Part shown: positions 34,401 to 64,000 of the stretch, in pieces
How the letters are laid out: every line of letters starts with the position of its first letter
Numbering within the stretch: the stretch's first letter is position 1
NCBI GenBank assembly: GCA_947650365.1
Contig: CANTAL010000024.1
Location: 1,578,501-1,642,500, forward strand
Direction of reading: 5' to 3'
Length of the DNA stretch: 64,000 nucleotides
From: Chamaelirium japonicum
Taxonomy: Eukaryota > Streptophyta > Magnoliopsida > Liliales > Melanthiaceae
Notes under the pieces: generated by a model
Told to the model about the DNA's origin: nothing
What the model saw: only the letters and a program-made list of their open reading frames with translations
The model's database searches: none
Position numbers and translations under genes: made by a program

Positions 34401-36265
34401 AAGAAGTCCTGCTCCAGTCAATTCACCACGGGTATAGGTATAAAGTAAGAAGGAATTTAAATTCTAAAACTCTACTTTTTAATATTTATATGACCCCTTT
34501 ACGGTGGGGCATGTTTGACGGCTCTTTCTTTTTCCTATCTCACAACACGTTATTAGCACAAACATCTCGAGCCTAGCTGACCTGTCATAAGAAAACAGAG
34601 AGAGAAATGAAGACAGGAGAGAGAAAAGAATGGAGAGATAAAAGAGGGAATAAGTCCTGCTCTAGTCCATTGATGACAGGTATAGGTATGAAGTAAGAAG
34701 GAATCTAAATTCCAAAACTCCACTTCTCAATAATATAATTTCTCCTATCTCACAATACGTTATCAGCAGGAACATGTCGAGCCCAGCCATCCGGTCGTAA
34801 GAAAATAGAGAAAGAAACAAAGACAGAAGTAGAGTTTTGAAATTTAGATTCCTTCTTACTTCACACCTACACCCGTGGCCAATGGACTTGAGTAGAATTT
34901 CTTCTCTCTAAAAGGGTCGTATATTACTTATAGGGTAAGCATACTTAGGGCCTAAGCAATCCATGGGAAATCTCTTCTCTCTGCTTCTCTTTCTTTTGTG
35001 GAGTTTTGGAATTTAGATTCCTTCTTACTTCACACCTATACCCGTGGCCAATGGACTGGAGTAGGAATTCTTCTCTCTTCGTTTATCTCTTTGTTCTCTT
35101 CTCTCTTATTGTCTCTCTTCTGTCTTTTTTTCTCTCTCTGTTTTCTTATAACTGGTCGGATGGGCTCGACATGTTCATGCTGATGACATATTATGAGATG
35201 GGAGAAAGAGAGAGCCATCAAATGTGCTTCACCCTAAATGGGTCGCATATTATTTATCGAGTAAGCTTACTTAAGGCCTAAGCAATTTATAGGAAACCCT
35301 AATCCATAGGATCCGACGGTGGATAGTCATCCTTCTTACTTCTCACCTATACCCGTGGCTAATGGACTAGAGCATGGAGAGATAAATAAAGAGAAAAGAA
35401 AGAAGAAGTCCTGCTCCAGTCCATTGGCTATGGGTATAGGTGTGAAGTAAGAAGGAATCTAAATTCCAAAACTCCACTTCTGTATTCATTTCTTTCTCTG
35501 TTTTCTTATGACTGGTCGGTTGGGATCGACATGTTCGTGCAGATAACGTGTTGTGAGATGGAAGAAAGAGAGAGCCATCAAACGTACCCCACCCTAATGG
35601 GGCTGTATAAATATTAGGAAGTGGAGTTTTGGAATTTAGATTTCTTCTTACTTCACATATATACTCATGGCCAATGGACTGGAGCAGGAATTCTTATTTC
35701 TTATCTCTTTGTTTAACTTTCTGTTCTCTTCTCTCTCTTCTATCTTTGTTTCTTTCTCTCTGTTTTCTTATGACTAGTCGGCTGGGCTCGACATGTTCGT
35801 GCTGATAACATGTTGTGAGATGGGAGAAAGAGAGAGCCGTCAAATATGCCCCACCCTAAAGGGGTCGTATATTATTCATAGGGTATGATTACTTAGATCC
35901 TAAGCTATCTAGAGGAATCCCTAATCCATGGGAGAAGATAGAAGAGAAAAGAGAGATTTAATTATATTACTGAGAAGTGAAGTAGAGCCATTAAACGTGC
36001 CCCTCCCTAAAAGGGTCGTATATTATTTATAGGATAAGCTTACTTAGGGTCTAAGCAATATATGGGAAACTCTAATATATGGGAGAAGAGAGAAGCGAAC
36101 GAAGAGATTTAATTATATTATTGAAAAGTGGAGCTTTTGAATTTACATTCCTTCTTATTTCATACCTATACCTGTCGCCAATGGACTGTATCAGAACTTC
36201 TTCTCTCTTCTTTCTTCGGTTATCTCTCCGTTCTCTTCTCTCTTCTTTACCAATTAATTTAAATT
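28420..36265. repeat. Higher-order tandem unit, copy 2 (about 7.8 kb)
   Basis: Direct tandem copy of the preceding 7.8 kb, with the same succession of array pieces. It starts with an AT spacer (28420-28680), has short AT spacers at 31420-31530 and 31660-31780, and ends just before the AT spacer at 36266. Local offsets vary between about 7.83 and 8.46 kb because single pieces were gained or lost; for example, extra pieces at 26500-26900 in copy 1 have no counterpart near 34900. No gene; all open frames are repeat read-through. Confidence 0.8.
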
Positions 36266-36605
36266 CAATAACTATTTACTTATTATTTAAATAACTAGTT
36301 AATTATTTGAATATATAAATAATAAAGTATTTTTTTAAATAAATTAATATTTTTTTAAATAATCAAATGAATATTTATTTATTTTAATATTTTAATAATA
36401 AATAAATTATTTAAAAAGTTTTAATTATTTAATTATATAGATAATTAAATATTTATTTAATTATTTATTTATTTAACTATTTAATTTATTAAAAAAATAA
36501 ATTAAATAAATAATATGAAGTAAAGAAGTAAGATGTGGTACATACGAATTTTTTGGTTTAAAAATATTTTATATTTTTTATAAAAAAAAATTAAAACATT
36601 ACAAC
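36266..36605 (+). repeat. AT-rich spacer and pre-LTR segment
   Basis: AT-rich spacer followed by the family's internal 3' segment: a short richer stretch GAAGTAAGATGTGGTACATA (36522-36541), then TTTTTTGGTTTAAAAATA and AAAACATTACAAC directly before the LTR start. This pre-LTR segment recurs before the LTRs at 40958, 42243 and 43695, and in inverted form at 50323, 61480 and 63728. Confidence 0.7.
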
Positions 36606-42410: not shown

Positions 42411-43862
42411 TATTATCAACAAGAATATGTCGAGCTCAGCCGACCAGTCGCAAGAAAACGGAGAGAAAAACATAGACAGAAGAGAAAGAAGAGAATAGAG
42501 AGATAAAAGAAGATAGAAGAGAGAAGAAGTCCTGCTCTAGTCCATTGGTCAAGGATATAGGTGTGAAGTAAGAAGGAATCAAAATTCCAAAACTCTACTT
42601 CTCAATAATATAATTAAATCTCCCTATTCTCTTCTCTCTTCTCTCATGGATTAGGATTTCCCATAGATTACTTAGGCCCTAAGTAAGCTTACCCTATAAA
42701 TAATATATGACCCCTTTAGGGTGGGGCATATTTGATAGTGCTTTCTTTCTCCCATATCACAATACGTTATTAGTACGAACATGTCGAGCCCAGCCGACCA
42801 GTCACAAGAAAACAGAGAGAGAAACGAAGACATAAGAGAAAAAAGAAGAGAGAAGAGAACGGAGAGATAAACAAAGAGAGAAGAGAGAAGAAGTCCTACT
42901 CCAATCCATTGGCCACGGGTATAGGTATAAAGTAAGAAGGAATCTAAATTCCCAAACTCCACTTCTCAATAGTATCATCTCAACGTTATTATGATTATCA
43001 TAGAAATGTTACTATAATTTTTTTAATTAAAATTATTATCTATTTAATTATTAAAAAATTTAAATAATTAAATAATTTAACTAATTTAATAATTAAGTTT
43101 ATAGTAAAATAATTAATTTATTTAATTATTTAATTATCTAGTTATTTAATTAAATTTATTATTTAATTTTATTTATTATTATTATATTATTTAATATTTA
43201 AATTAGGTAACTATTTAATTATTTAAATTATTAAATAATTAATTAATGATTTAAAAATTTTAAATAATTTAAAAATAATTAATTATTATTTAAAAAATAC
43301 TTAATTATAAAACATTAAAGCTATCGAGCCCAGCCGACCAGTCGTAAAAAAACAGAGAGAGAAATGAAGATAGAAGAAAGAATAAGAGAGAAGAGAACGA
43401 AAAGATAAACGAAGATAGAAGAGAGAAGTAGTCCTGCTCTTAGTCCATTGGCCTCGGGTATAGGTGTGAAGTAAGATGGAATAAAAATTCCAAAACTCCA
43501 CTTCTAAATAATATAATTAAAATTTTGAATAATTTAAAAAATATTTAATTATTTAATTATTTATCTATTTAATTTATTAAACTAATTAAATTAATTAAAT
43601 AATAAGAAGTAAAGAAGGAAGATGAGGCATACCCGAAATTTTTGCTTTAAAAATAATTTATATTTTTCTTTAAAAAAATTTAAAATATTACAACTGTTAT
43701 GAGATCATTCGATCGGATGGCTGTCCACCGTCGGATCTCTCCCATAGATTAGGGTTTCCCATTGATTGTTTAGGCTTTATGTAAGTTTACCTTATAAATA
43801 ATATACAACCCCTTTAGAGTGGGGCACGTTTGATGACTCTCTCTTGCTCCTACCTCACAACA
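42243..43862 (+). mobile_element. Second LTR retroelement unit chained to the first
   Basis: LTRs at 42243-42410 and 43695-43862, each 168 bp. The unit shares its left LTR with the preceding element, so the order is LTR-internal-LTR-internal-LTR. The interior is compound. A conserved block at about 42510-42605 is joined to a second partial LTR (42650-42770), followed by another conserved block (to 42965), AT spacer, a further partial unit at 43320-43505, and the pre-LTR segment. No coding capacity; an old fossil. Confidence 0.7.
42341..42348 (+). promoter_or_regulatory. TATA box in LTR
   Basis: TATAAATA at LTR position 99, preceded by the palindrome CTTAGGCCCTAAG and GTAAGCTTACCC. Nearly every LTR part in the array keeps this context. 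It is the probable promoter of the ancestral element; activity today is unknown. Confidence 0.6.
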
Positions 43863-46800
43863 CGTTATCAGCAAGAATATATCGAGCCCAGTACACCAGT
43901 CGCAAGAAAACAGTGAGAGAAACGAAGACAGAAGAGAGAGAGAAGAAGAAAGAAGAGTATGGAGAGATAAACGAAGATAGAAGAGAGAAGAAGACCTGCT
44001 CCAGTCCATTGGCCATGGATATAGGTGTGAAATAAGATGGAATCTAAATTCAAAAACTCTACTTCTAAATAATATAATTAAATCTCTCCGTTCTTTTCTC
44101 TCTTCTCCTATGGATTAGGGTTTCCCATAGAGAAAGAAAGAGTCATTTTCATTTATCTCTCCATTCTTATCTCTCTTCTCCTATGGTTTAGGATTTTCGA
44201 TAGATTGCTTAGGATCTATGTAAGCTTACCCAAAAAATAATATATGACCCTTTTAGGGTGGGGATCATTTGATGACTCTCTTTCTCCCATCTCACAACAC
44301 ATTATCAGCACGAACAAGTCGAGCCTATCTGACAAGTAACAAGAAAACGGAGAAAAAAACGAAGAGAGAAGAGTGAGAAGAAAACGGAGAGATAAACAAA
44401 GATATAAAAGAGAAGAAGTCCTGCTCTAGTCCATTATCCACGGGTATAGGTGTGAAGTAAAATAATTAAATTATTATAACTAATTAATTATTTAATAACT
44501 AATTAGGTCTGACCAGTCATTCGATCGGATGGCTATCCACCGTCGGATCATTTCTATAGTTTAGGGTTTCCCATAGATTGCTTAGGCCCTAAGTAAACTT
44601 ACCCTATAAATAATATACGACCCCTTTAGGGTAGGGCATATTTGACGGCTCTCTCTTTCTCCCATCTCACAACACGTTATCAGTATGAACATGTCGAGCC
44701 CAGCCGACCAGTCACTAGAAAACGGAGAGAAAAATGAAGACAGAAGAGAGAAAATAAAAGAGAAAAGAGTGGAGAAATAAATGAAAAGAGAAAAGAGAAG
44801 AAGTCCTGCTGCAGTCCATGGCCACAGGTATAGGTATGAAGCAAGAAGGAATCTAAATTCCAAAACTCCACATCTCAATATTTATAATTAAATCTCTACG
44901 TTCTCTTCTCTCTTCTACCATTGATTAGGATTTCTCATAGATTGCTTAGGCCCTAAGTAAGCTTACCCTATAAATAATATACGACCCCTTTAGAGTGGGG
45001 CACGTTTGACGGCCACGGGTATAGCTGTGAAGTAAGAAGGAATCTTAATTCCAAAACTCCATTTCTTAAGTATCATCTCAACGTTATTATGATTATCATA
45101 GTAATATTACTATAATTTTTTTAATTAAATTAATTATTTATTTAATTATTAAATAATTTAAATAATTTAATCATTTAAATAATTTAATAATTAATTTTTT
45201 TTAATAAATAATTAATTTATTTAATTATTTAATTATATAGTTATTTAATTTTATTTATTATTATTATTTATATTATTAAATAATTAAATTAGGTAACTAA
45301 TTAATTTTTTAAATTATTAATTAAATAAATAATGATTTAATTATATAATTAATTTATTTTATTAGTTATTTCTTTAATTATTATTTTATTTTTAAATAAT
45401 TAAATAATTAGTTAATTATTTAAACAAATAGAGAGAATGGAGAGATAAATAATAATGCCCTATCCAAAAAAAGAATTGTAATAATATTAATTATTTCATG
45501 TTCATACTTAAAAAAGAGAGAGCCGTCAAACGTTCCCCACTCTAAAGGGGTCATATATTATTTATTGAGAAGTGGAGTTTTCGAATTAGATTCCTTCTTA
45601 CTTCACACTACTTTACACCTATACCCGTAGCCAATAGACTGAATCAATACTTTTTCTCTTTTCATTTATCCTCCATTCTCTTCTCCCTTTATTTATCTCT
45701 GTGTTCTCTTCTTTCTTCTTCTCTCTCTCTTCTGTCTTTGTTTCTCTCTCTGTTTTCTTGTGACTGGTCGGTTGGGCTCAATATATTCGTGTGGATACCG
45801 TATTATGAGATAGAAGAAAAAGAGAGCCATTAAATATATCCCATACTAATTAGATTCTTTCTTACTTTACACCTATATCCATGGCTAATAAACCAGTGCA
45901 GAACTTCTTCTATCTTCTCTTTTTATTTATCTCTCTGTTCTTTTCTCTCTCTTCTATAGAGTCTTGGAATTTAGATTCCTTCATACTTCATACCTATACC
46001 TGTGGCCAATGAACAGGATCAGAACTTCTTCTCTCTTCTCTCTTTGTTTATCTCTCCGTTCTCTTCTCTCTTCTTCTTTCTCTTCTGTCTTCATTTCTCT
46101 CTCCGTTTTCTTGTGATTGGTCAGCTGGACTCAATATGTTCATACTGATAACGTGTTGTGAGATTGGAGAAAGAGAGAGCCATCAAACGTACCCCACCCT
46201 AATGGGATAATATATTATTTATAGGATAAGATTACTTAGGGCCTAAGCAATCTATGGGAAATACTAATCCATGGGAGAGATCCGACAGTGGACAACCATC
46301 CTTCTTACTTCACACCTATACCCATGGCGAATAGACAGGTGCAGGACTTCTTCTCTCTTCTATCTTCTTCTCTCTCTAATTATCGGATAGCTGTCCACCG
46401 TTGGATCTCTCCCATGGATTAGTGTTTCCCATAGATTGCTTAGGCCCTAAGTAAGCTTACCTTTTAAATAATTAGGGCTAATCAGTCATCTCAACGTTAT
46501 TATGATTATCATAGTAATGTTACTAAATTTTTTTTAATTAAATTAAACATTTATTTAATTATTAAATAATTTAATAATTAAGCTTTTAAGAAAATAATTA
46601 ATTTATTTAATTAAATTTATTATTTTATTTCTTTTTATGATTATATTATTAAATAATCAAATTGGGTAAATATTTAATTTTTTAAATTATTAAATAAAGA
46701 AATAATGATTTAATTATTTTATTAATTATTATTATTATTTTTAATTAATTAAATAATTAGTTAATTATTTAAATTTTAAAAACCTATTTAGTGAAGAAAT

Positions 46801-49205
46801 ATATTAAATAGATTACTTACTTAAAAAATAATTAATTAAATTAAAAAAATATTTATTTATAATCATAATAATGTTGGGATGACTTAAATAACTAATTAGT
46901 TAATAAATTGAATAAATATTTAAATAAATAAATAATTAAAGAAATAATGATTATTATTCTAATGTTACTATAATTTAAAAAAATTAAACTATGATAATTT
47001 AATAAATAGGTTTTCTATAATATTTCTTTGTATATTATTTAAATTAATCATCTATTCAATATAAAATAAATTATTTATTTTACTAAAAATATAATAATTA
47101 AATTATTTAAATTATTAAATTATTAAATAAATTATTAATTTAATTATAAAAAATATAGTAAAATTACTATGATAATCATAATAATATTGAGATGATACTT
47201 TTTTAATTAAATATAAATGAAGAAAGAAGAGAGAAGAAGTCATGCTCTATTCTATTTATACGGTAAGCTTACTAATTGAGAGAATTGATTATATAAATTT
47301 ATTTAAAGAAATATTAACTAAAATAAATATAATAAATAAGCAATCTTCCATCTCATTACACGTTATCAGCATGAACATGTCGAGCCTAATCGACCAGTCA
47401 CAAGAAAACAAAGAAAGAAACAAAGACAGAAGAGAGAGAAGATAAGAGAAAAGAACAAAGAGATAAACGAAGATAGAAGAGAGAAGAAGTCATGCTCCAG
47501 TCCATTGGCCATGGGTATAAATATGAAGTAAGAAAGAATCTAAATTCCAAAACTCCATTTCTCAATAGTATCATCTTAAAGTAATTATGATTATCATCGT
47601 AAATTCTCTTCTTTCTTTATTTTAATTAAACGATTAATTTTTAAAAAATAATTATAGTAACATTACTATGATATATGATTATTTAACTAATTATAACGTT
47701 AAGTTAAATAAAGAGAAGTGGAAGAAAAAAGACCTATATTTAATTGATTGCAGGTAGAAAATATTTAAATATGGATTAGGTGTGAATGTCATTTATAAGA
47801 GAGAATTAAATTTTGATTAATTGATTGTAGGACTTCTTCTTTCTTCTCTCTTCTCTCTTCAATATGTTCGTGGTGATAACGTGTTGTGAAATAATTTAAT
47901 ATTTAACAATTCTCTCTTTGTTTATCTCTCTATTTTTTTCTTTTTTTCTCCCATCTCACAATACATTATCAGTACGAACATATCGAGCATAGCCGACCAG
48001 TCATGAGAAAACGAAGAAAGAAACAAAGATAGAAAAAGATAAAAAGAGAGGAAAACAGAGAGATAAACGAAGACATAAGAGAGAAGAAGACAAAAGAGAA
48101 TGAAGAGATAAACAAATATAGAAGAGAGAAGAAGTCCTACTCAGTCCATTCGCCAAGGGTATAAGTGTGAAGTAAGAAGGATGGAACACTTTATCAGTAT
48201 GAACATATCGAGCACAGCCAACCAGTCACAAGAAAACAGAGAGAGAAACAAAGACAGAAGAGGGAGAAAAAGAGAGAAAAGGACGGAGAGATAAACGAAG
48301 ACATCAGAGAGAGAAGAAGACAGAAGAGAACGGAGAGATAAACGAAGATAGAAGAGAGAAGAAGTCCTATTCCAGTCCATTCGCCACGGGTATAGGTATG
48401 AAGTAAGAAGAATGGCTGTCTATCATCGGATCACTCCCAAGGATTAGGGTTTCCAATAGATTACTTAGGCCCTAAGTAAGCTTACCCTATAAATAATATA
48501 CGACCCCTTTAGGGTGGGGCATGTTTGATGACTTTCTCTTTCTCCTATCTTATAACACGTTATCAGTACGAATATATCGAGCCCAGTCGACCAGTCACAA
48601 GAAAACAGAAAAAGAAACAAAGACAGAAGTAGATTTTTAGAATTTAGATTCCTTCTTACTTCACACTTATACTTCACACGGGTATAGGTGTTAAGTAAAA
48701 TGGAATCTAAATTTCAAAACTCCAAAGAAAAGAAAGAAGAAAAGAGAAGAGAGAATAGAGAGAGAAACGAAGATAGAAGAAAGAGAATAAGATAGAAGAG
48801 AGAACGGAGAGAGAAACAAAGACATAAGAGAGAGAAGAAAAGAGAAGTGAACATAGAGATAAATGTAGATAGAAGGGAGAAGAAGTCTTGTTCCGGTCCA
48901 TTGGCTACAGGTATAGATGTGAAGTAAGAAAAAATCTAAATTCTAATACTCCACTTCTGTCTTCGTTTCTCTCTCCGTTTTCTTATGACTGGTCGGCTAG
49001 GCTCGATATGTTCATGCTGATAATGTGTTATGAGATAGGAGAAAGAGAGAAGAGAACGAAGAGATAAATATTCCAAGCTTAAATTAAAAAAAAATATTAA
49101 ACATATTATTAATAATTTAATTTAATAAATAATATAAAGGAGATTTAAATAATTTAAATTTATTTAATAATTTAATTATCTAGTTATTTAATTATTTTAC
49201 TAAAA
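43567..49205 (+). repeat. Left arm of a large inverted duplication
   Basis: No gene. Read backwards, this arm follows the same order of pieces as 55600-63858, including rare joins. Examples (left/right) are AAGCAATAAG-type worn LTR 44110-44230/63200-63300, the hybrid join near 44875/62545, TTACTTCACACTACTTTACA 45600/59240, and AAGAATTGTAATAATATTAA 45475/59375. Others are TGCCCTATCC 45456/59395, the long AT spacer 46480-47240/57600-58350, the unusual segment 47690-47850/56985-57130, GGATGGAACACTTTATCAG 48179/56595, and TTCCAAGCTTAAATT 49070/55725. AT spacers lie at 45061-45520, 46481-47240, 47560-47900 and 49061-49205. At about 45013 the arm lacks some 2.6 kb present in the right arm. Confidence 0.8.
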
Positions 49206-50154
49206 ACTTAATTATTAAATTTATTAAATATTTAAATTATTTAATAATTAAATAAATAATTATAGTAATATTACCATGATAATTATAAAAACGTTGAGAT
49301 GACACTATTGAGAAGTAAAGCTTTGGAATTTAGATTCCTTCTTACTTCACACCTATACCTGTGGTGAATAGACTAGAGCAAAACTTCTTCTCTCTTCTCT
49401 CTTCATTTATCTCTCCATTCTCTTATTTCTTCTTCTCTCTCTTCTGTCTTCGTTTCTCTCTTTATTTTCTTCTCTCTTCTATTTTCGATTCTCTCTTTCA
49501 TAAATTGCTTAGGCCCTAAGTAAGCTTACCCTATAAATAATATACCACCCCTTTAGGGTGGGTCATGTTTGATGACTCTCTCTTTTTCCTATTTTATAAT
49601 ACGTTATCAGCATGAATATGTAGAGCCCAGCCGATCAGTCACAAGAAAACAGAGAGAGAAACAAAGACATAAGAGAGAGAAGAAGAGAGAAGAGAACGGA
49701 GAGATAAACGAAGAGAGAATAGAGAAGAATAGAGAAGGGAACAGAGAGATAAAAGAAGAGAGAGGAGAGAAGAAGTCCTGCTCAATTCCATTGGCCACGG
49801 GTATAGGTGTGAAGTAAGAAGGAATCTAAATTCCAAAACTCCACTTCTCAATATTTATACGACCCCTTTAGAATAGGACACGTTTGACGGCTCTCATTTT
49901 CTCCCATCTCACAATATATTATCTCTCTGTGCCTCACCCTAAAGGGGTCGTATAAATATTAGGAAGTAGAGTTTTGGAATTTAGATTTTTTCTTACTTTA
50001 CACCTATACTCGTGTCGAATGGATTGGAGCAGGACTTCTTCTCTCTTCGTTTATCTCTCCGTTCTCTTCCATTTTCTTCTCTCTCTTATATTTTCATATC
50101 TCTTTGTTTTCTTGTGATTGGTCGGCTGGGCTTGATATGTTCGTGCTGATAACG
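49206..50154. repeat. LTR-family array in the centre of the inverted duplication, part 1
   Basis: No gene. AT spacer to 49310 with the conserved TTACCATGATAATTATAA edge, then a minus conserved block with pyrimidine tract (49315-49500). Next is a plus LTR part (49500-49600) with a long GAGA tract (to about 49770) and conserved block. A short piece and a minus unit lead into the LTR at 50155. Confidence 0.7.
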
Positions 50155-50322
50155 TATTATGAAATAGGAGAAAGAGAGAGTCGTTAAATATGTTCCACCC
50201 TAAAGAAGTCGTATATTATTTATAGGGTAAGTTTACTTAGGGCATAAGCAATCTATAGGAAACCCTAATCCATATAAGAGATCCGATAGTGGACAGCCGT
50301 CCGATCGAACGATCTCATAACA
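50155..50322 (-). mobile_element. Complete 168-bp LTR (3' LTR of a minus-strand element)
   Basis: 168 bp between the primer-site complement TCGTGCTGATAACG at 50141-50154 and the pre-LTR segment to its right. With the LTR at 52547-52714 it bounds a minus-strand element whose 5' LTR is the right-hand one. Fossil. Confidence 0.75.
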
Positions 50323-51190
50323 GTTATAATTGTTTAAATTTTTTTAAAGAAAAATATAAATTATTTTTAAAGCAAAAAATTCGACTATACCTCATCTTCC
50401 TTCTTTACTTCCTATTATTTATTTAATTTAATTAGTTTAATAATTTAAATAGCTAAATAATTAAATAAATATTTATTTATCTATATAATTAAACTATTTA
50501 AATAATTTATTTATTTTTTGAATATTAAAATAAAAAATATTTATTTAATTATTTAAAATATATTAAGGTATTTAATAAAAAATTTTATTATTTATATATT
50601 CAAAAACATAACTAATATTTAAATAATAAGTAAATAGTTATTGAATTATTATTTTATTTTAGGATATAATTAAATAATTAATTATTTTATTTATTTTAAT
50701 TAATATTTTATAATTTTATAAAATAATTTTTTTATTATTTAATTATATAATTATTTCTTTAAATAATTATTTATTTAAATATAAAATCATTTAAAAATAA
50801 AATTATTTATTTTTTTATTAAATATTCTATTTAATATATTTCTTCACTAAATCAGTTTTTAAATATTTAAATAATTAATTAATTATTTAATTATTTAAAA
50901 ATAAAATAATAATTAAAGAAATAACTAATAAATTTAATTATATAATAAAATCATTATTTTTTAATTTAATAATTTAAACAATTAAATAGTTATCTAATTT
51001 AATTATTTAATAATATAATAATAATAAATTAATTAAATAATAAATTTAATTAAATAACTAGATAATTAAATTAATTAATTATTTTACTAAAAACTTAATT
51101 ATTAAATTATTTAATAATTAAATAAATGATTAATTTAATTAAAAAAATTATAGTGACATTACTATGATAATCATAATAATATTACTAAAT
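50323..51190 (-). repeat. Long AT-rich spacer with both conserved edges
   Basis: In minus sense it runs from the conserved edge (complement of ACTATGATAATCATAATAA, right end) to the pre-LTR segment with GAAGATGAGGTATAGTCGAA (left end). It is one of the best full-length spacers, comparable with 41330-42242. No gene. Confidence 0.75.
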
Positions 51191-52546
51191 TCCAAAACAC
51201 TACTTCTATCTTCGTTTCTCTCTTCGTTTTCTTCTCACAACACATTATCAGCACGAACATGTCGAGCCCAACCGACCAGTTACAAGCAAACGGAGAGAGA
51301 AACGAAGACAGAAGTAGAGTTTTGGAATTTAGATTCCTTCTTACTTTACACCTATACCCTTGGCTAATGGACTGGAGTAGGACTTCTCTACTTTTCTCTT
51401 TTTATTTATCTCTCTGTTCTTTTCTTTCTTCTTCTCACTCTTCAGTGGAGTCTTGGAATTTTGATTCCTTCTTACTTCACACCTATATCTGTGGCTAATA
51501 GACTGGAGCAGGACTTCTTCTCTCTTCTCTCTTTGTTTATCTCTTTATTCTCTTCTCTCTCTTCTGTTTTCGTTTCTCTCTCTGTTTTCTTATGACTGGT
51601 CGGCTGGGCTCGATATGTTCATACTGATAATGTATTGTGAGATGGGAGAAAGAAAGAGCTATCAAACATGCCCCACCCTAAAGGGGTCAAATATTATTTA
51701 AATATAAAGTAAAATGGCTCTCTATATTTAAAAAATTGATAGCTCTCTCTAGTCTAATTAATTATTGATGGCTCTCTCTTTCTTCTATCTCATAACACAT
51801 TAAATAACCAGATAATAGAATAATTACTTAATTAAATTATTTTAATTAATTAATTAATTTAATTAAAAAAATCATAGTAATATTTCTATGATAATCATTA
51901 TAACGTTGAGATGATACTATTGAGAAGTAGAGTTTTGGAATGTAGATTCCTTCTTACTGCACACCTATACCCGTGGCTAATGGATTGGAGTTGAACTTCT
52001 TCTTTCTTCTCTTTTTATTTAACTCTTCGTTCTCTAATTTCTTCTTGTATCTCTTCTATGGAGTTTTGGAATTTAGATTCCTTCTTACTTCACACCTATA
52101 CCTGTGGCGAATGGATTGGAGCAGTACTTCTTCTCTCTTCTATCTCAATATATATTTAATTAGTTTACTTTATATTATTAATATTAAAAAAATAATTAAA
52201 TAATTAAATAATTTATTTATTTTACAAAAAATTATTTATTTAATTATTTAATAATTAAATAATTAAATAAAAAATTAATTTAATTAAAAAAATTATAGTA
52301 ACATTACTATGATAATCATAATAATATTGAGATAATACTATATAGAAGTAGAGTTTTGGAATTTAGATTCCTTCTTACTTTACACCTATACTCATGGAGA
52401 ATGGACTAGAGCAGGACTTTTTCTTTCTTCTCTCTTCGTTTATCTCTCCGTTCTCTTCTCTTTTCTTCTCTCTCTTCTGTCTTCGTTTCTTCTCTCTGTT
52501 TTCTTATTACTGGTTAGCTGGGCTCGACATGTTCATACTGATAACA

Positions 52547-52714
52547 TATTGTGAGAAAGGAGAAAGAGAGAGTCATCAAACATGCCCCACCCTAAAGGGA
52601 TCGTATATTATTTATATGGTAAGCTTACTTAGGGCCTAAGCAATCTATAGGAAACCCTAATCGATGTAAGAGATTCGACGGTAGACAACCATCCAATCGA
52701 ACGATCTCATAACA
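52547..52714 (-). mobile_element. Complete 168-bp LTR (5' LTR of a minus-strand element)
   Basis: 168 bp, starting on the minus strand at 52714 with TGTTATGAGATCG. Followed to the right by the pre-LTR motif GTTGTAATATTTTATAATTA and a short variant spacer. Fossil copy. Confidence 0.78.
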
Positions 52715-55599
52715 GTTGTAATATTTTATAATTAAATATTTAAATAATAATATTAAGATGATACTATTTAAATATTTAAAAAAATAATATACTTTATAAT
52801 ATTTAAAGAAATATTAATTTAAATAAATAAAATAAATAAGCAATCTCCAATCTCACAACACGTTATTAGCATGAATATGTCGAGCCCAACCAACTAGTCA
52901 CAAGAAAACAGAGAGAGAAATGAAGACAGACGAGAGAAGAGAACGGAGAGATAAACAAAAAGAGAATAGAGAAGAAGTCCTGCTCCAGTCCATTCGCTAC
53001 GTCTATAGGTATGAACTAAGAAGGAATCTAAATTTCAAAACTCCACTTCTCTATAATATAATTAAATCTCTCCGTTCTCTTCTCTCATCTACAATGGATT
53101 AGGGTTTCCCATAGATTTCTTAGAGAAGAAGTCTTACTCTAGTCCATTCACCACGGGTATAGGTGTTAAGTAAGAAGGAATCTAAATTCCAAAACTCTAC
53201 TTCTGTTTTTATTTCTCTCTTTATTTTCTAATAACTGGTCGGCTGGGCTCGATATATTCGTACTAATAACGTATTGTGAAATGGGAGAAAGAGAGTTGTC
53301 AGACGTGCCCCACCCTACTTAGGGTCATATAAATATTGAGAAGTAGAGTTTAGGAATTTAGATTCCTTCTTAATTCACACCTATACCCGTGGCTAATAGA
53401 CTAGAGCAGGACTTTTTTTCTCTTCTCTCTTCGTTTATCTCTCCGTTCTCTTCTATCTTTTTCTCTCTATTTTGTCTTCGTTTCTTTCTCCGTTTTACTA
53501 TTTTTATATTCAAATAATTAAATTATTTTTAAAATAATATATAAATAGTTATTAAATTATTTTTTTACTTTATTATTTAATTAAATAATTTATTTATATT
53601 TTTTTATTTTAATTAATATTTCTTAATTTAATAAAATAATTTTTTAATTATTTATTTATATAATAATTAATTTAAATTATTATTTATTTTAAATAAATTA
53701 TAATATAATTAAATAATTAAAAAATATATTTAATTATAAAATATTAGTTAAAATAAATATAAAAATTAATTATTTAATTAAGTAATAAAATAAAACAATA
53801 ATTTAATAACTATTTACTTATTATTTAAGTGATTAGTTAATTATTTGAATATATAAATAAGAAAATAGAGAGAAAAATGAAAATAGAAGAGAGAGAGAAG
53901 AGAACGGAGAAATAAACGAAAAGAGAAGAAGTCTTGCTCTAGTCCATTGGCCACGAGTATAGGTGTGAAGTAAGAAGAAATCTAAATTCCAAAATTTCAC
54001 TTCTCATTATTTATACGACCCCTTTAGGTTGAGGCACAAAGAGATAACATGTTATGAGATGGAACAAAGAGAGAGTCGTCAAATATGCCCCACCCTAAAG
54101 GGGTCATATAAACATTGAGAAGTGGAGTTTTGGAATTTAGATTCCTTCTTACTTCAAACCTATACCCATGGCTAATAGACTAGAGTAAGACTTCTTTTCT
54201 CTTCTCTCTTTATTTATCTCTCTGTTCCCTTCTTTCTTCTTCTCTATTCTCTTTTTATTTATCTCTTCATTCTCCTCTCTCTTCTTCTCTCTATTCTATC
54301 TTTGTTTCTCTCTCCATTTTCTTGTGACTTATCGGTTGGGCTCGACATATTCGTACTGATAACATGTTATGAGATGGGAGAAAGAGAGAGTCATTAAACA
54401 TGACCCACCCTAAAGGCGTCGTATATTATTTATAGGATAAGCTTACTTAGGGCCTAAGTAATCTACGGGAGAGAGACAAAGAGAGAAGAAAACAAAAAGA
54501 GAAACGAAGACAAAAGATAAAGAAGAAAAGAGAAGAAAATGGAGAGATAATTATTTATGATTATCATAGTAATGTTATTATAATCATTTATTTAATTATT
54601 AAATATTTTAAGTATTTAATAATTTTAATAATTTACTAATTAAGTTTTTAGTAAAGTAATTAATTTATTTAAATATTTATATCTCTAGTTATCAGTTATT
54701 TTTTTAATATTAATAATATAAAATAAACTAATTAAATAAATATTAAGAGAGAAGAGAGAAAAAGTCCTACTCTAGTCTATTCGCCATGGGTATTGGTATA
54801 AAGTAAGAAGGAATCTAAATTCCAAAACTCTACAGAAGAGAGAGAAGATGTGAGAAGAGAACGAAGAGATAAATAAAGAGAGAATAAGTCCTTCTCTAGC
54901 CCATTGGCTATGGGTATAAGTGTGAAGTAAAAAGCAATCTAAATTCCTAAAACTAAACTTCGTAATAGTTCATTTTATTTAAATAATTTAATAACTATTT
55001 ATACTATAATAATTTTATTTAATTAACTATTTTACTAAAAACTTAATTATTAAATTATTTAAATTATTTAAATATAAATAAATGATTAATTTTATTAAAA
55101 AAATTATAGTAATATTACTATGATAATCATAATAACGTTAAGATGATACTATTATGAAGTGGAGTTTTGGAATTTAGATTCCATCTTACTCCACACCTAT
55201 ACCCATGACTAATAGGTTGGAGCAGGATTTATTCTCTCTTTATTTATCTATTCATTCTCTTCTCTTTTCTTCTTTCTCTTCTGTCTTCGTTTCTCTCTCC
55301 GTTTTCTTCTCTCTTCTTCTCTCTCTTCTATGGAGTTTTGGAATTTAGAGTTCTTTTTACTTCACACCGATACCCGTGGCCAATGTACTGGAGCAAGACT
55401 TCTTCTCTCTTCTCTATTTATTTATCTCTTCGTTCTCTTCACTCTTCTTATCTATCTTCTGTGGAGTTTTGGAATTTAGATTCCTTCTTACTTCACACCT
55501 ATATCCATAGCGAATAGACTGGAGCAGGACTTGTTTTCTCTTCTCTCTCAATATTTATTTAATTACTTTACTTTATATTATTAATATTAAAAAATAATT
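52715..55599. repeat. LTR-family array in the centre of the inverted duplication, part 2
   Basis: No gene. Short variant spacer (52715-52830), then plus pieces to about 53100. Facing blocks follow at about 53125-53220, then a minus unit to 53500. Next are an AT spacer (53500-53870), mixed pieces to 54550, AT spacers at 54550-54740 and 54960-55150, and two minus blocks to 55550. 52715-52850 resembles the inverted sequence at 3165-3310. The stretch 55110-55600 resembles 51880-52230 in the same orientation. Confidence 0.7.
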
Positions 55600-57429
55600 A
55601 AATAATTAGATAATTAAATTATTAAATAAATTCAAATTATTTAAATCTCTCTTATATTATTTATTAAATTAATTATTAATAATATATTTAATAAATTTTA
55701 TTTAATTTAAGCTTGGTATATTTATCTCTCCATTATCTTCTCTTTTTCTCCTATCTCAACATATTATCAGCACGAACATGTCGAGCCCAGCCGACCAGTC
55801 ATAAGAAAAAGGAAAGAGAAACAAAGACAGAAGTGGAGTTTTGGAATTTAAATTCCTTCTTACTTCACACCTATACCCGTAGTCAATAGACTAGAGCAAG
55901 ACTTATTCTCTCTTCTATCTTCGTTTATCTCTCTATTTGTTTTTCTCTTCTTCTCTCTCTTATGTCTTCGTTTCTCTCTCTGTTCTCTATTCTTTCTTCT
56001 TCTCTCTTTTTTGTCTTTGTTTCTCTCTCCATTCTCTCTTCTCTTTTCTTTTTTCTCTTCTGTGGAGTTTTGAAATTTAGTATCTGTATTACTTAATACC
56101 TATACCCGTATGAATTATAGGTGTGAAGTAAGAAGGAAACTAAATTCTAAAACTCCAATTCTATCTTAGTTTCTCTTTCCGTTTTCTTATGACTGGTCGA
56201 CTGGGCTCGATATGTTTGTATTGATGTGTTATAAGATGGGAGAAAAAAAGAGCCGTCAAACATGCCCCACCATAAAGGGGTCATATATTATTTATAGGGT
56301 AAGCTTACTTAGGGCCTAAGCAATCTATGGGAAACCCTAATCCTTGGGAGAGATCTGATGGTGGACAGCCATCCTTCTTACTTCATACCTATACCCATGG
56401 CGAATGGACTGGAGTAGGACTTCTTCTCTCTTTTATTTCTATTTATCTCTCTATTCTCTTCTATCTTCTTCTCTCTCTTATGTCTTCGTTTATCTCTTCA
56501 TTCTCTTCTCTCTTTTTCTCTCTCTTCTGTCTTCGTATCTCTCTCTGTTTTCTTGTGACTAGTCGGCTGTGCTTGACATGTTCGTGCTGATAATGTGTTT
56601 CATCCTTTTTACTTCACACCTATATCCATGGCGAATGGACTAGAACAGGACTTCTTCTTTCTTCTATCTTTGTTTATCTATCTGTTCACTTCTGTCTTCT
56701 CTCTCTTATGTCTTAGTTTATCTCTCTGTTCTCTTCTATCTTTTTCTCACTTTTTCTTTCTCTTTTTCTCTCTCTTCTATCTTTGTTTCTCTTACCTTTT
56801 TCTTATGACTGGTCGGCTGTGCTCGACATATTCATATTGATAATGTGTTATGAGGTAGGAGAAAGAGAAAAAAGAATAAAGAGATAAACAAAGAGAGAAT
56901 TGTTAAATATTAAATTATCTCACAATACATTATCAGTATGAATATGTCGAAGAGAGAAGAGAGAAGAAGTCCTGTAATCAATTTATCAGAATTTAAATCT
57001 CTCTTATAAATAATGTTCACACCTAATCCATATTTAAATCTCTTCTACTTGTAATCAATTAAATATAGGCCTTTTTTCTTCCACTTCTCATCATTTAACT
57101 TAACGTTATAATTAGTTAAATAATTATATATCATAGTAATATTACTATAAATTTTTAATTAAATTAATCGTTTAATTAAAATAAAGAGAGAAGAGAATTT
57201 ACAATGATAATTATAATAATATTAAGATGATACTATTGAAAAGTGGAGTTTTGGAATTTAGATTCCTTTTTACTTTACACCTATACCCGTGGGCAATGAA
57301 CTGAAACATGACTTCTTCTCTCTTCGTTTATCTCTCCGTTCTCTTCTCTCTTCTTCTCTCTCATCTGTTTTTGTTTCTCTTTTCATTTTCTTGTGACTGT
57401 TCGGTTGGGCTTGACATGTTCGTGCAGAT

Positions 57430-58350
57430 AACATGTTTTGAGCTGGGAGATTACTTATTTATTTTATTTATTTTAGTTAATATTTCTTTAAATAAATTTA
57501 TATAATAAATTCTCTTAATTAGTAAGCTTACTTTATAAATAGAATGAAGCAAGACTTCTCCTCTTTTCTCTTTTCATTTATATTTAATTAAAAAAGTATT
57601 ATCTCAACGTTATTATGATTATCATAGTAATATTACTATAATTTTTATTAATTAAATTAATAATATATTTAACAATTTAATAATTTAAATAATTTAATTA
57701 TTATATTTTTAGTAATATAATTATTTATTTTATATAAATAGATGATTAAATTAAATAATATATGAAGAAATATTATAGAAACCCTATTTATTAAATTATC
57801 ATAGTTTATAAAATTATAGTAACATTACAATGATAATCATTATTTCTTTAATCATTTATTTTTTTTAAATATTTATTCAAATTATTAACTAATTAGTTAG
57901 TTAAGTCATTTCAACGTTATTATGATTATAAATAAATATTTTTTTAATTAAATTATTTATTTGTTTAAGTAAATAATCTATTTAATATATTTCTTCACTA
58001 AATAAGTTTTTAAATATTTGAATAATTGACTAATTATTTAATTAATTAAAAATAAATTATTAATTAATAAAATAATTAATTATATAATTAAATCATTATT
58101 TCTTTATTTAATAATTTAAATAATTAAATAGTTACCTAATTTGATTATTTAATAATATAATCATAAAATAGAAATATAATAATAAATATAATTTAATAAC
58201 TAGATAATTAAATAATTAAATAAATTAATTATTTTAATAAAAACTTAATTATTAAAATTATTAAAATTATTTAATAATTAAATAAATAGTTAATTTAATT
58301 AAAATAATTATATTAATATTACTATGATAATCATAATAACGTTGAGAGGA
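57430..58350. repeat. Long AT-rich spacer in the right arm
   Basis: AT-rich sequence with three separate copies of the conserved edge (near 57605, 57900 and 58320). It is therefore a chain of spacer pieces. No gene. Confidence 0.75.
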
Positions 58351-59770
58351 CTGGTGACCCTAATTATTTAGAGGGTAAGCTTGCTTAGGGCCTAAGCAAT
58401 CTTTGGGAAACCATAATCCATGGGAAAGATCCGACGGTGGATAGCTATTAGAGAGAGAAGAAGAGAGAAGAGAGAAGAAGTCCTGCTCTAGTCCATTAGC
58501 CACGGGTATAGGTGTGAACTAAGAAAGATGGTTGTCTATCGTCAGATCTCTCCCATGGATTAGGGTTTCCTATAGATTACTTAGGCCCTATGTAATCTTA
58601 CCCTATAAATAATATATTATCCCTTTATGATGGGGCACATTTGACGACTCTTTTTTTCTCCAATCTCACAACACGTTATTAGCATGAACATGTCAAGCCC
58701 AGCCGACCAGTCGTAAGAAAATGAAGAGAGAAACGAAGACAGAAGAGAGAAAAGAAGAGAGAAAAGAAGAGAGAAAAGAACGGAGAGATAATCAAAGAGA
58801 GAAAAAAGAAGAAGTTCTGCTCCTGTACATTGGCTATGGGTATAGGTATGAAGTATGAAGAAATCTAAATTCCAAAACTCTATAGAAGAGAGAGAATAAG
58901 AGAAAAGAGAATGGAGAGATAAATAAAGAGAGAAGAGAGAAGAAATCCTGCTCCAGTCCATTAACCACGGGTATAGGTGTGAAGTAAGAAGGAATCTAAT
59001 TAGGGTGGGGCATATTTGATGGCTCTCTCTTTTTCCCATCTCACAACACATTATCAACACGAACATATCGAGCCTAGCCGACTAGTCACAAGAAAATGGA
59101 GAGAGAAACAAAGACAAAAGAGAGAGAGAAGAAGAGAGAAGAGAACGGAGAGATAAACAAAGGGAGAAGAGAATAAAGAGATAAACAAAGAGAGAATAAG
59201 TAATGCTCCAGTCCATTGGCCACGAGTATAGGTGTGAAGTAGTATAAAGTAAAAAGGAATCTAAATTTCAAAACTTCACTTCCCAATAAATAATATACGA
59301 CCCCTTTAGGGTGGGGCATATTTGACGGCTCTCTCTTTTTTAAGTATGAACATGAAATAATCAATGTTATTATAAATTTTCTTTAGGATGGGGCATTATT
59401 ATTTATTTCTCCGTTCTCTCACTTCGTTTAAATAATTAACTAAATATTTAAGTATTTAAAAATAAAACAATAATTAAAGAAAAAATTAATAAATTAAATT
59501 AAAAATAAATAATATAATTAAATCATAATTTCTTTATTTAATAATTTAAAAAATTAATTAGATACCTAATTTAATTATTTAATAATATAATAATAATTAA
59601 ATTAAATTAAATAACTATATAATTAAATAATTAAATAAATTAATTATTTTATTAAAAACTTAATTATTAAATTATTTAAATTATTTAATAATTAAATAAA
59701 TGATTAATTTAATTAAAAAAATTATAGTAACATTACTATGATAACTATAATAATATTGAGATAATACTAT

Positions 59771-61479
59771 TGAGAAGTAGAGTTTTGGAATTTAGATTCC
59801 TTTTTACTTCACACCTATACCCGTGGCCAATGGCCGGGAGCAGGACATCCTCTTACTTAGGGCCTAAGCAATCTATGGGAAACCCTAATTTATGAGAGAG
59901 ATCCGATAGTGGATAGCTATCCGATAATTAAAGAGAGGAGAAGAGAGAAGAAAGAAGAAGTCCTGCTCCAATCAACTCGCCACAGGTATAGGTGTGAAGT
60001 AAGAAAAATGGTTATCCACCATCGGATCTCTCCCATGGATTAGGGTTTTCCATAGATTAATTGCTTAGGCCATAAATAAGCTTACCCTATAAATAATGTA
60101 TTATCCCTATAGGGTGGGGCATATTTGACGGCTTTCTGTTTCTCTCATCTCACAATACGTTATCAGCACGAACATGTTGAACCCAACTGACCAATCGCAA
60201 GAAAACGAAGAGAGAAATGAAGATAGAAGAAAAGAGAAGATAATGGAGAGATAAATAAAGAGATAAGAAAACCTGCTCGAGTTTATTGGCCACGGGTATA
60301 GGTGTGAGGAAAGAAAGAATCTAAATTTCAAAACTTCGCAGAAGTGAGAGAAGAAGAGATAATAGAACGGAGAGATAAATACAGAGAGAAGAGAACGGAG
60401 AGATAAATAAAGAGAGAAGAGAGAAAAAAACCTGCTTGAGTTTATTGGCCACGGGTATAGGTGTGAGGAAAGAAAGAATCTAAATTCCATAACTCCACAG
60501 AAGAGAGAGAGGAAGAGAGAATAGAATGAAAAGATAAATGAAGAGAGAAGAGAGAAAAAGTCCTACTCCAGTCCATTGGCCCTGGGTATAGGGGTAAAGT
60601 ATCAAGGAATCTAAATTCCAAAACTCCATAAAAAAAGAGACAAAAAGAGAGATTAAATATGGAGTAGGATTAAAAATAATATTAGTTAAATAATCTCTCC
60701 TATTCTGCACGAACATATCGAGCCCAGCCGGCCAGTCATAAAAAAACGGAGAGAGAATCAAAGACAAAAAAGAGAAAAGAACGGAGAGATAAACGAAAAG
60801 ATAAGAGAAAAGAAGTCTTACTCCAGTCCATTCATTATGGGAATAGGTGTGAAGTATAAAGGAATCTAAATTCCAAAACTCCACTTCTTAATAATATAAA
60901 TAATCTCTCTGTTCTCTTATCTCTTCTTCTCTCTCTTCTGTCTTCTCTTCTCTCTATTTTCTTATGACTGGTCGGCTGTGCTCGACAGAAGTGGAGTTTT
61001 AGAATTTAAATTCCTTCTTACTTCACACCTATACCCGTGGCCAATGGACTAGAGCAAGACTTCTTCTCTCTTCTCTCTTTTTCTCTCTCTTTTGTCTACG
61101 TTTCTCTCTCTGTTTTCTTATGACTGGTCGGCTGGGCTCGACATGTTCGTGCTGATAACGTGTTGTGAGATGGGAGAAAAAGAGAGCCATCAAACGTGCC
61201 CCACCTTGAAGAGGTCGTATATTATTTATAGGGTAAGCTTACTTAGGGCCTAAGCAATCTATAGAAAATCATAATCCATGGGGGAAGAGAGAAGAGAACG
61301 AAGATATTTAATTATATTACTGAGAAGTGGACTAGAGTCGTCAAACGTGCCCCACTGTAAAGGGGTCTTATATTATTTATAGGGTAAGTTTACTTAGGGC
61401 CTAAGCAATCTATGAAAAACCCTAATACATGGGAGAGATCCGACAGTAAACAGCCATCCGATCGAACGATCTCATAACA
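59771..61479. repeat. Right-arm array block with closely repeated pieces
   Basis: No gene. Between about 60240 and 60500 two nearly identical pieces (CCTGCTCGAGTTTATTGGCC and CCTGCTTGAGTTTATTGGCC, each followed by GGTGTGAGGAAAGAAAGAAT) stand about 180 bp apart in tandem, a local duplication more recent than most. Minus units at 60980-61280 and 61330-61479 follow, the latter a partial LTR ending in the LTR start. Confidence 0.7.
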
Positions 61480-63559
61480 GTTAAAATATTTTAAATTTTT
61501 TTAAAGAAAAATTTAAATTTTTTTTAAAGCAAAAAATGTGGTTGTGCCGCATCTTTCTTCTTTACTTCCTATTATTTAATTTGTTTAATAAATTAAATAG
61601 TTACCTAATTTAATTATTTAATTATATAATCAAAATAAATAAATAAAATAATAAATTTAATTAAATAACTAGATAATTAAATAAATTAATTATTTTACTA
61701 AAAACTTAATTATTAATTTATTTAAATTATTTACTAATTAAATAAATAATTAATTTAATTAAAAAAATTATAGTAAATTACTATGATAATCATAATAACC
61801 TTGAGATGATACTTGAGAAGTTGAGGTTTGGAATTTAGATTCCTTCTTACTTCACACCTATACCCGTGGCCAATAGATTGGAGCAAGACTTCTTCTCTTT
61901 TCTCTCTTTATTTATCTTTCCGTTCTCTTCTCTCTTCTTCTCCCTCTTCTCTCTTCTTCTCTCTCTTCTCTCCTCTTGTCTCACTTCGTTTTCTTATGAC
62001 TGGTTGTCTGGGCTCGATATGTTTGTGCTGATAATGTGTAGTGAGAAGACAGAAGACGAGAGAAGAGAATGGAGAGATAAATAAAGAGAGAAGAGAGAAG
62101 AACTCCTGCTCCAGTCCGTTAGCCACGGGTATGGGTTTGAAGTAAGAAAGAATCTAAATTCCAAAACTCCACAAAAGAAAGAGAAGAAGAGTGAAGAGAA
62201 TTGAGAGATAAATAAAGATAAAAGAGAGAAGAAGTTATACTCCAGTCCATTGGCCACGGGTATAGGTGTGTAGTAAGAAGGAATCTAAATTCCAAAACTT
62301 TACTTCTGTCTTTGTTTCTCTCTCCATTTTCTTGCGACTTGTCGGCTGGGCTCGATATGTTCGTGCTGATAACGTATTATGAGATGGGAGAAAAAGAGAG
62401 TCGTCAAACGTGCCCCACATTAAAGGGGTCATATTTTATTTATAGGATAAGCTTACTTAGGGTCTAAGTAATCCATGGGAAACCCTAATCCATGGGAAAA
62501 GAGAGAAGAGAATGGAGAGATTTAATTATAAATATTAAGATGTGGACTTTTGGAATTTAGATTCCTTCTTACTTCACACCCATGCTTGTGGCCAATGGAC
62601 TAGAGGACTTCTTCTCTCTTCTCTCTTCAATTATCTCTCCATTCTCTTCTATTTTTTTTCTCTTTGTTCTGTCTTCATTTTTCTCTCCATTTTCTTGTGA
62701 CTGGTCGGCTGGGCTCGACATGTTCATGCTGATAACGTGTTGTGAGATGGGAGAAAGAGAGGGCCATCAAACGTGCCCCAAACTAAAGGGGTCGTTTATT
62801 ATTTATAGGGTAAGCTTACTTAGGGCCTAAGCTATCTTTGAGAAACCCTAATCCATGGGATAGATCCGACGGTGGACAGCCATCCAATCGAATGACTGGT
62901 CGGTCCTAATTAGTTATTAAATAATTAATTAGTTATTTTAATTTAATTATTTTACTTTACATCTATACCTGTGGGCAATGAATTAGAGCAGGACTTCTTC
63001 TCTTTTATATCTTTGTTTATCTCTATATTCTGTTCTTTCTTCTTCTCTCTATTCTATCTTCGTTTCTCTCTCCGTTTTGTTGTGACTTGTCGGTTGGGCT
63101 CGACATGTTCATGCTGATAATGTGAGGTGAGATGGGAGAAAGAGAGAGCCGTCAAACGTGCCCCACCCTAAAGGGGTTGTATATTATTTATTGGGTAAGC
63201 TTACATAGAGCCTAAGCAATCTATGGGAAATCCTAATCCATAGGAAAAGCAATAAGAGAACGAAGAGAAAAACAAAGACGGTTCTCTCTTTCTATATGGA
63301 AAATCCTAATCCATGGGAGAAGAAAGAAAAGAACGGAGAGATTTAATTTTATTATTGAGAAGTGGAGTTTTCGAATTTAGATTTTTTCTTATTTCACACC
63401 TATACTCGTGGCCAATGGACTGGAGTAGGACTTCTTCTCTCTTCTATCCTTGTTTATCTCTCTATTCTCTTATTTCTTCTTCTCTTTCTTCTATCTTCGT
63501 TTCTCTCTCCGTTTTCTTACGACTGGTCTGTTGGGATCGACATGTTCTTGCTGATAATA

Positions 63560-63727
63560 TATTGTGAGATAGGAGAAAGAAAGAGTCGTTAAACGTGCCC
63601 CACCCTAAAGGGGTCGTGTATTATTTATAGGATAAGCTTACTTAAGGCCTAAGCAATCTATAGAAAACCCTAATTCATGGGAGAGATCTGACGGTGGACA
63701 GCCATCCGAACGAATGATCTTATAACA
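63560..63727 (-). mobile_element. Complete 168-bp LTR nearest the telomere-like DNA
   Basis: 168 bp between a primer-site complement on the left and the pre-LTR segment (63728-63858) on the right. It corresponds to the LTR at 43695-43862 in the inverted arm. Fossil copy. Confidence 0.78.
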
Positions 63728-63858
63728 GTTATAATGTTTTAAATTTTTTTAAAGAAAAATATAAATTATTTTTAAAGCAAAAAATTCGGGTGGGCCTCAT
63801 CTTCCTTCTTTACTTCTTATTATTTAATTAATTTAATTAGTTTAATAAATTAAATATA

Positions 63859-64000
63859 GGGTTTTAGGGTTTAGGGTTTTGGGTTTTGGGGTTTAGGGTT
63901 TAGGGTTTTTAGGGTTTTTAGGGGTTTAGGGTTTAAGGGGTTTAGGGTTTATGATCTAGGGTTTTGGGTTTTGGGTTTAAGGTTTAGGGTTTAGGGTTTT
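63859..64000 (+). repeat. Degenerate telomere-like TTTAGGG repeats
   Basis: Runs of TTTAGGG with variants TTTTAGGG, TTTTGGG and TTTTTAGGG, interrupted by ATGATCTAGGG, fill the window to its edge. The G-rich strand points rightwards, the orientation expected if the chromosome end lies to the right. The degeneracy indicates a proximal or interstitial tract rather than the active terminus. It begins directly after the pre-LTR/AT spacer sequence of the right arm. Confidence 0.93.

What the first reader, a model, noticed from the sequence alone, without database searches (positions are those of the whole stretch)
43567..63858. Large imperfect inverted duplication abutting telomere-like repeats
About 5.6 kb (43567-49205) recurs in opposite orientation at 55600-63858, with the order of array pieces kept and many rare joins shared. 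Examples are TTACTTCACACTACTTTACA against its complement near 59240, the AAGCTTAAATT spacer join, and GGATGGAACACTTTATCAG. The centre of about 6.4 kb is not mirrored. The right arm ends exactly where telomere-like DNA starts. An inverted duplication ending in telomeric sequence is what fold-back or breakage-fusion-bridge repair followed by telomere capture can leave. The arms differ at roughly one base in seven to ten, so the event looks old.
Basis: seen in the sequence. Interest (0 to 1): 0.8.

Follow-up and report, generated by a model that had tools for sequence, protein, structure and literature searches.

The report
Old mirrored duplication beside buried telomere
A plant-like genome carries, at several chromosome ends, the same long block holding an old mirrored duplication of about 10 kb that stops at a short, worn, telomere-like tract; it resembles the duplicated blocks of human chromosome ends more than one recent repair event.

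Summary
The mirrored duplication is real and larger than reported: right arm 53859-63856 (10.0 kb) mirrors left arm 43566-50113 (6.5 kb) around a 3.7 kb spacer, 88.8% identical without gaps over 5611 columns. The right arm's extra 2.57 kb is a left-arm deletion shared by 6 loci; 11 others keep the piece.

The telomere reading needs revision. The array/TAGGG join recurs without mismatch at 16 places. The telomere-like tract is 715-755 bp in three readable copies, about half perfect TTTAGGG, then gives way to other DNA; this contig runs 424 kb further. It is an interstitial tract inside a subtelomeric duplicon, as described in human subtelomeres.

The arms are about as far from each other (0.10-0.15) as from two unlinked copies (0.10-0.15). 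At the inner tip the left/right split predates dispersal; for the outer arms this is unresolved. Three unlinked right arms end elsewhere, so 63856 need not be the original end.

Order, spacer and tract direction fit an old fold-back healed by a telomere, but do not prove it. Boldest reading: a short inverted tip was later extended and capped.

The parts
43566..50113 (+). left (proximal) arm; 43566-49230 and 49407-50113 align with the right arm; lacks 2573 bp at 45010/45011 and about 829 bp near 49230-49407
50114..53858 (.). spacer between the arms, not mirrored as a whole (about 3.7 kb); it holds part of a weaker inverted stretch around 53661 (53122-54200, 74%)
53859..63856 (-). right (distal) arm, 10.0 kb, inverted copy
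59829..62402 (-). piece of the right arm missing from the left arm here and at 5 other loci, kept in the left arm at 11 loci
63794..63856 (.). last 63 bp of the right arm, identical to the left arm, flush against the telomere-like tract
63857..64000 (+). start of the degenerate telomere-like (TTTAGGG) tract, which continues beyond the window; 715-755 bp long in three paralogous copies
43100..43565 (+). array flank outside the mirrored part; contiguous with the left arm at 16 family loci and 24 other places among 40 scored
7400..8800 (+). marker of the proximal side of the duplicon; found full length at 17 places, 15 of them also with the telomere-like join, 56-68 kb from it

Best explanation
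The window holds part of a subtelomeric duplicon of more than 75 kb of a plant-like genome. Inside it lies an old inverted duplication of an AT-rich, retroelement-like repeat array (arms about 10 kb, spacer about 3.7 kb), abutting a worn interstitial telomere-like tract of about 0.75 kb whose G-rich strand runs outward. SHOWN: anatomy, copy number of the join, interstitial position, later left-arm deletions, arm divergence. INFERRED: a broken array end folded back on itself, copied the array outward and was at some time capped by telomeric repeats at 63856; later other DNA was joined beyond the tract, so that the old end was buried, and the whole block spread between chromosome ends by ectopic exchange or tip translocation. 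The block has no gene-like role that I could see; its effect would be on recombination between chromosome ends.
For: Inverted arms. Same join at 16 of 16 pattern matches with 0 mismatches, reversed-pattern control 0. Centre found at 17 places at 96-100%; left arm at the same 17. Locus C12 is colinear with the window at 99.0% over 50,164 columns and at 98.3% over 17,400 columns distal to the tract. The CACTA-like piece 7400-8800 lies at 17 places, 15 of them join loci. From contig lengths, the G-rich strand points to the nearer contig end in 15 of 16 joins, in 14 of them 90-433 kb from it; the end of contig C32 is a regular telomere (28 TTTAGGG in 200 bp), 122.6 kb beyond its join. Internal TTAGGG-like tracts up to 823 bp, oriented to the telomere, occur at human subtelomeric duplicon boundaries (PMC2323237, passages).
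Against: The fold-back step is not shown: arm-arm distance equals arm-unlinked distance, and over 60600-61500 the right arm is closer to unlinked copies (87-88%, gapped) than to the 11 full left arms (82-83%). Right arms of unlinked copies end at other places (C37 at 55421, C7 at 55503, C4 at 59743), so the join may be a later truncation. In the loci read, both sides of the tract are shared, so the tract is not the edge of the block as it stands. One join (C80) points to the farther contig end and one (C5) is 9.4 Mb from the end. C41 has centre, left arm and right arm but no join within 3 mismatches. Eight of the 16 joins are on contigs of 0.8-3.3 Mb that may be alternate haplotypes, so independent ends may be as few as 8 or fewer.
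Confidence: 0.72

Rival explanations
2. Breakage-fusion-bridge by sister-chromatid fusion, then telomere capture at this chromosome end.
For: Inverted arms ending flush at telomere-like DNA in the outward orientation.
Against: A 3.7 kb spacer, whereas U-type sister fusion predicts none (PMC3907307, passages). The join is shared by 16 places and the tract is interstitial.
Confidence: 0.07
3. The telomere-like tract was inserted into an existing palindrome during break repair (as described for short ITSs of primates, rodents and horse), and was never a chromosome end.
For: Interstitial today, flanked on both sides by shared DNA. ITS insertion at double-strand breaks is known (PMC7215372, abstract start in search listing).
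Against: The tract is long and worn (715-755 bp, 46-52% in perfect units); the array does not resume beyond it within the nearest few kb of the three readable copies (a related array copy lies about 18-20 kb out). 15 of 16 tracts point to the nearer contig end.
Confidence: 0.2
4. A giant fold-back transposon with terminal inverted repeats, its ends at 43566 and 63856.
For: Mirrored ends at both coordinates.
Against: 43566 is no element end: 43100-44100 is contiguous at 24 unlinked places at 88-91% and at 16 family loci. The right end differs among copies.
Confidence: 0.02
5. Assembly artefact (palindromic misjoin).
For: The genome is an assembly with 3253 contigs; no reads were available.
Against: The same arrangement at 17 places, in two subfamilies about 4% apart with a subfamily-specific deletion; the arms are 11-15% diverged.
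Confidence: 0.02

Closest known systems
Human subtelomeric duplicons with internal (TTAGGG)n-like tracts (PMC2323237, passages seen)
   Same: Multi-kb blocks shared by many chromosome ends; worn telomere-like islands (there up to 823 bp, here 715-755 bp in three copies) mostly oriented to the telomere.
   Different: Plant-type TTTAGGG; the array beside the tract is an inverted duplication; in the loci read here the tract is inside the shared block, not at its edge.
Subtelomeric ITS dividing proximal and distal subtelomere domains in yeast and human (PMC6410037, passages seen)
   Same: A degenerate telomere-like tract separates an array-rich proximal part from a different distal part.
   Different: The distal part is 90-433 kb long in 14 of 16 joins by contig coordinates; adjacent ARS not tested.
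Terminal inverted duplications formed by fold-back in human genomes (PMC3907307, passages seen)
   Same: Two inverted copies, a short spacer (median 3428 bp there, about 3.7 kb here), and an inversion-telomere join.
   Different: Those are recent Mb-scale events; here the arms are 11-15% diverged, the telomere-like tract is buried, and the arms are not closer to each other than to unlinked copies.

Membership tests
Subtelomeric duplicon with internal telomere-like tract | block shared by several chromosome ends | tested here: met
   centre at 17 places 96-100%; join at 16 places, 8 of them on five contigs of 70-100 Mb; the other 8 contigs may be alternate haplotypes
Subtelomeric duplicon with internal telomere-like tract | lies close to chromosome ends | tested here: met
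   14 of 16 joins lie 90-433 kb from a contig end; regular telomere shown at the end of C32 and at the left end of C3. Exceptions: C5 at 9.4 Mb, and C80
Subtelomeric duplicon with internal telomere-like tract | tract oriented toward the telomere | tested here: met
   15 of 16 point to the nearer contig end; C80 does not
Subtelomeric duplicon with internal telomere-like tract | tract at a duplicon boundary | tested here: inconclusive
   it is the boundary between array and other DNA, but both sides are shared in C12, C3 right end and C32
Fold-back inverted duplication with telomere healing | inverted arms around a single-copy spacer | tested here: met
   spacer 50114-53858; copy number of the spacer before the event not testable
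Fold-back inverted duplication with telomere healing | right arm is a copy of the left arm of the same locus | tested here: inconclusive
   L-R about equal to L-unlinked; quartet sites with outgroup D 12:12:3; speaks against it
Fold-back inverted duplication with telomere healing | ends in a telomere | tested here: not met
   interstitial worn tract; whether it once was terminal is not testable here
Breakage-fusion-bridge sister fusion | no spacer at the fusion point | tested here: not met
   3.7 kb spacer; criterion from PMC3907307 passages
Fold-back (TIR) transposon | both ends fixed among copies, with target-site duplication | tested here: not met
   left end continuous with array at 24 unlinked places; right ends differ

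The most novel reading that the evidence does not exclude
A fossil series of a two-step fold-back at a plant chromosome end: the copies on C37 and C7 show the state before (left arm plus a short inverted tip, right arm stopping at 55421-55503); in one lineage a broken end annealed through that tip to its own left arm, copied it outward for about 8.3 kb and was healed by telomerase at 63856; the healed end was later buried under 90-430 kb of distal DNA and seeded many chromosome ends. Fits: the tip L/R split is older than dispersal, and the inner segment is more diverged (0.144) than the main outer segment (0.115). Against: the outer arms show no excess of L-R sharing (12:12), and favours unlinked copies.
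Probability: 0.2. Interest if true: 0.65.

Novelty: new member of a known kind. Interest (0 to 1): 0.4.

Why it matters
It shows that the duplicon-plus-internal-telomere layout known from human subtelomeres also exists in a plant-like genome, with one join copied to many ends. Because copies with short, intermediate and long right arms survive in one genome, the order of fold-back, truncation, telomere healing and spread could be tested with related species.

Tried and rejected
Rfam scan of the window at gathering thresholds: 0 matches. Open frames of 130 aa or more in the arms (for example 58617-59081, 60107-60562) look like translated CT-rich repeat; I did not search them further. A giant transposon was rejected because 43566 is not an end. 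Sister fusion was rejected as the simplest model because of the spacer. The right-arm 'insertion' of 2.57 kb was re-read as a left-arm deletion. I tried to resolve whether the outer right arm was copied from its own left arm: tree without outgroup and quartet counts with the distal copy D leave it open; the placement of D had support 52 only. One alignment row (C44, only its outer 2.2 kb held) and short overlaps (75-214 sites) give unreliable distances and I did not use them. The host species was not identified. Paper searches (listings) showed no report of this arrangement in a plant; one search returned 0 papers; subscription journals are mostly not held.
Full report
WHERE IT LIES. The window is G000:C36:1578501-1642500 of a 1.52 Gb, 3253-contig assembly; contig C36 is 2,067,022 bases long. 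The TTTAGGG repeats and a CACTA-type transposase (Transposase_21, DUF4218, Transpos_assoc, DUF4216) point to a plant; the species was not identified. Window 18-64 kb is mainly a complex array: one 181 bp stretch of it used as probe matched at 81 places of the window in both orientations.

OBSERVATION. Two colinear inverted matches, 45011-49230/59828-55556 (85.1%) and 43566-45011/63856-62402 (86.8%), are the strongest of 2523 inverted matches. Without gaps the identity is 88.8% over 5611 columns. The inner parts 49407-50113/54550-53859 (84.2%) continue the mirror, so the arms reach to a spacer of about 3.7 kb. Shuffled pieces give top inverted matches of at most 1790 bp in 20 shuffles. In 37 of 42 left-arm tiles the mirrored place is the best match in the window; 5 are not.

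THE ARMS WERE ONCE EQUAL. A query across 45010/45011 matches without a break at 6 loci (C36, C41, C3 left, C12, C14, C80; 98-100%) and broken at 11 (C157, C47, C7 left, C7 right, C6, C32, C5 left, C5 at 83.8 Mb, C77, C44, C3 right). In C3 right, C32 and C44 the DNA at the break matches the mirrored right-arm piece. So the left arm lost 2.57 kb in one subfamily. A further loss of about 829 bp near 49230-49407 is shared by the window, C3 right and C32, while the C7 copy has that stretch.

THE TELOMERE-LIKE TRACT IS BURIED AND SHARED. The join pattern occurs 16 times with 0 mismatches; the reversed-pattern control occurs 0 times. In C12, C3 right and C32 the tract is 755, 715 and 741 bp, with 46-52% in perfect TTTAGGG units, 4.5-9.1% apart, and is followed by non-telomeric DNA. 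Its far edge, TTTAGGG|CAGTTTTATCAGAACCGG, is found at 15 of the 16 join loci (13 exact; the window's own copy could not be read) and, with 2-3 mismatches, at six other places without the join, as if a dispersed element starts there (a hAT-like family is recalled, not tested). C32 ends in regular telomere repeats. Exceptions are C80 (points to the farther end) and C5 (9.4 Mb from the end).

THE BLOCK. C12 is colinear with the window at 99.0% over 50 kb, and at 98.3% over 17 kb distal to the tract; C3 right and C32 are at about 94-97% with insertions. The piece 7400-8800 is present full length at 17 places at 97-100%, 15 of them join loci, at 56-68 kb from the join. The loci fall into two subfamilies, about 1% apart within the one tested pair and about 4% between. 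Eight joins lie on five contigs of 70-100 Mb and eight on contigs of 0.8-3.3 Mb that may be alternate haplotypes.

AGE AND RELATION OF THE ARMS. Over 4.0-4.2 kb, left-right distance is 0.115-0.122, left-unlinked (C37, C7 at 79.99 Mb) 0.115-0.121, right-unlinked 0.111-0.117. By segment (pairs with more than 500 sites): left-right 0.10-0.15, left-unlinked 0.10-0.13, right-unlinked 0.11-0.15; the left-right distance is larger than left-unlinked in the outermost, the 61100-59829 and the innermost segments, and about equal in the others. Over 60600-61500 the right arm is 87-88% to unlinked copies but 82-83% to the 11 complete left arms (gapped). So nothing marks the arms as a private pair. At the inner tip, which C37 and C7 also carry in inverted form, left groups with left and right with right (support 99; 5:1:0 sites), so that part of the palindrome is older than the dispersal. 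For the outer arms, sites with the distal copy D as outgroup are 12 for left+right, 12 for left+unlinked and 3 for right+unlinked; gap columns are 18, 27 and 6: unresolved. C4's right arm is closer to the window's right arm (0.080) than to unlinked copies (0.093-0.102) or the left arm (0.122).

WHERE RIGHT ARMS END. The right arm runs to 63856 at the 16 join loci, to 59743 in C4, then other DNA, to 55421 in C37, to 55503 in C7, and at least to 55900 in C11. So the left arm is the ordinary form of the array, and the right arm is the labile part. This fits both progressive truncation of an old palindrome and stepwise extension.

MECHANISM. Shown: old inverted duplication; later losses; shared buried tract; spread of a large block. 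Inferred: fold-back at a broken end (a spacer of 3.7 kb fits the 766-70466 bp, median 3428, of human cases; sister fusion would leave none; PMC3907307, passages), telomere addition at 63856 (flush join, 63 identical bases up to it), burial, and spread. The alternative that two family members met head to head, with the tract added separately, remains open (0.3).

COMPARISON. Human subtelomeric duplicons have internal TTAGGG-like islands of up to 823 bp, usually oriented to the telomere and nearly always at duplicon boundaries (PMC2323237, passages); [quoted passage not shown] The present case works like these. It differs by the plant-type repeat, by the mirrored array next to the tract, and in that both sides of the tract are shared in the loci read. 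I therefore file it as a new member of a known kind, with an unusual inverted neighbour.

LIMITS. No reads, no related species, no names. The genome search scored at most 40 candidates per DNA query, so family sizes are lower bounds.

Noticed in passing
14547-17990: About 19 copies of a 181 bp tandem satellite, 91% matches.
   Followed up: no
8906-11185 and 11839-12513: CACTA-type transposase pieces (Transposase_21, DUF4218, Transpos_assoc, DUF4216); 1-911 is an inverted copy of 9448-10358 at 88.6%.
   Followed up: partly
21620-28624 and 30009-36467: Direct duplication of about 6.5-7 kb of array in three colinear pieces, 82-84% identical.
   Followed up: no
G000:C5:83832722: A join with its block lies 9.4 Mb from the end of a 93 Mb contig: an internalised subtelomere or a misjoin.
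   Followed up: no
G000:C41, around 1.94-1.96 Mb: Centre, left arm and right arm present but no join within 3 mismatches.
   Followed up: partly
L010 (C36, about 18-20 kb beyond the join): A further array copy in right-arm orientation distal to the tract, about 13% from the arms (row D).
   Followed up: partly
L015 (C3 right end): An insertion of about 10 kb sits inside the left arm of this copy.
   Followed up: no
array units, for example 48480-48600: Units hold TATAAATAATATACGACCCC and CACAACACGTTATCAGCACGA-like stretches, which recall a Copia LTR and primer site (recalled, not tested).
   Followed up: no
L047 (end of C12): Last 200 bases of this contig are degenerate TTTAGGG-like repeats, not regular ones.
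   Followed up: no
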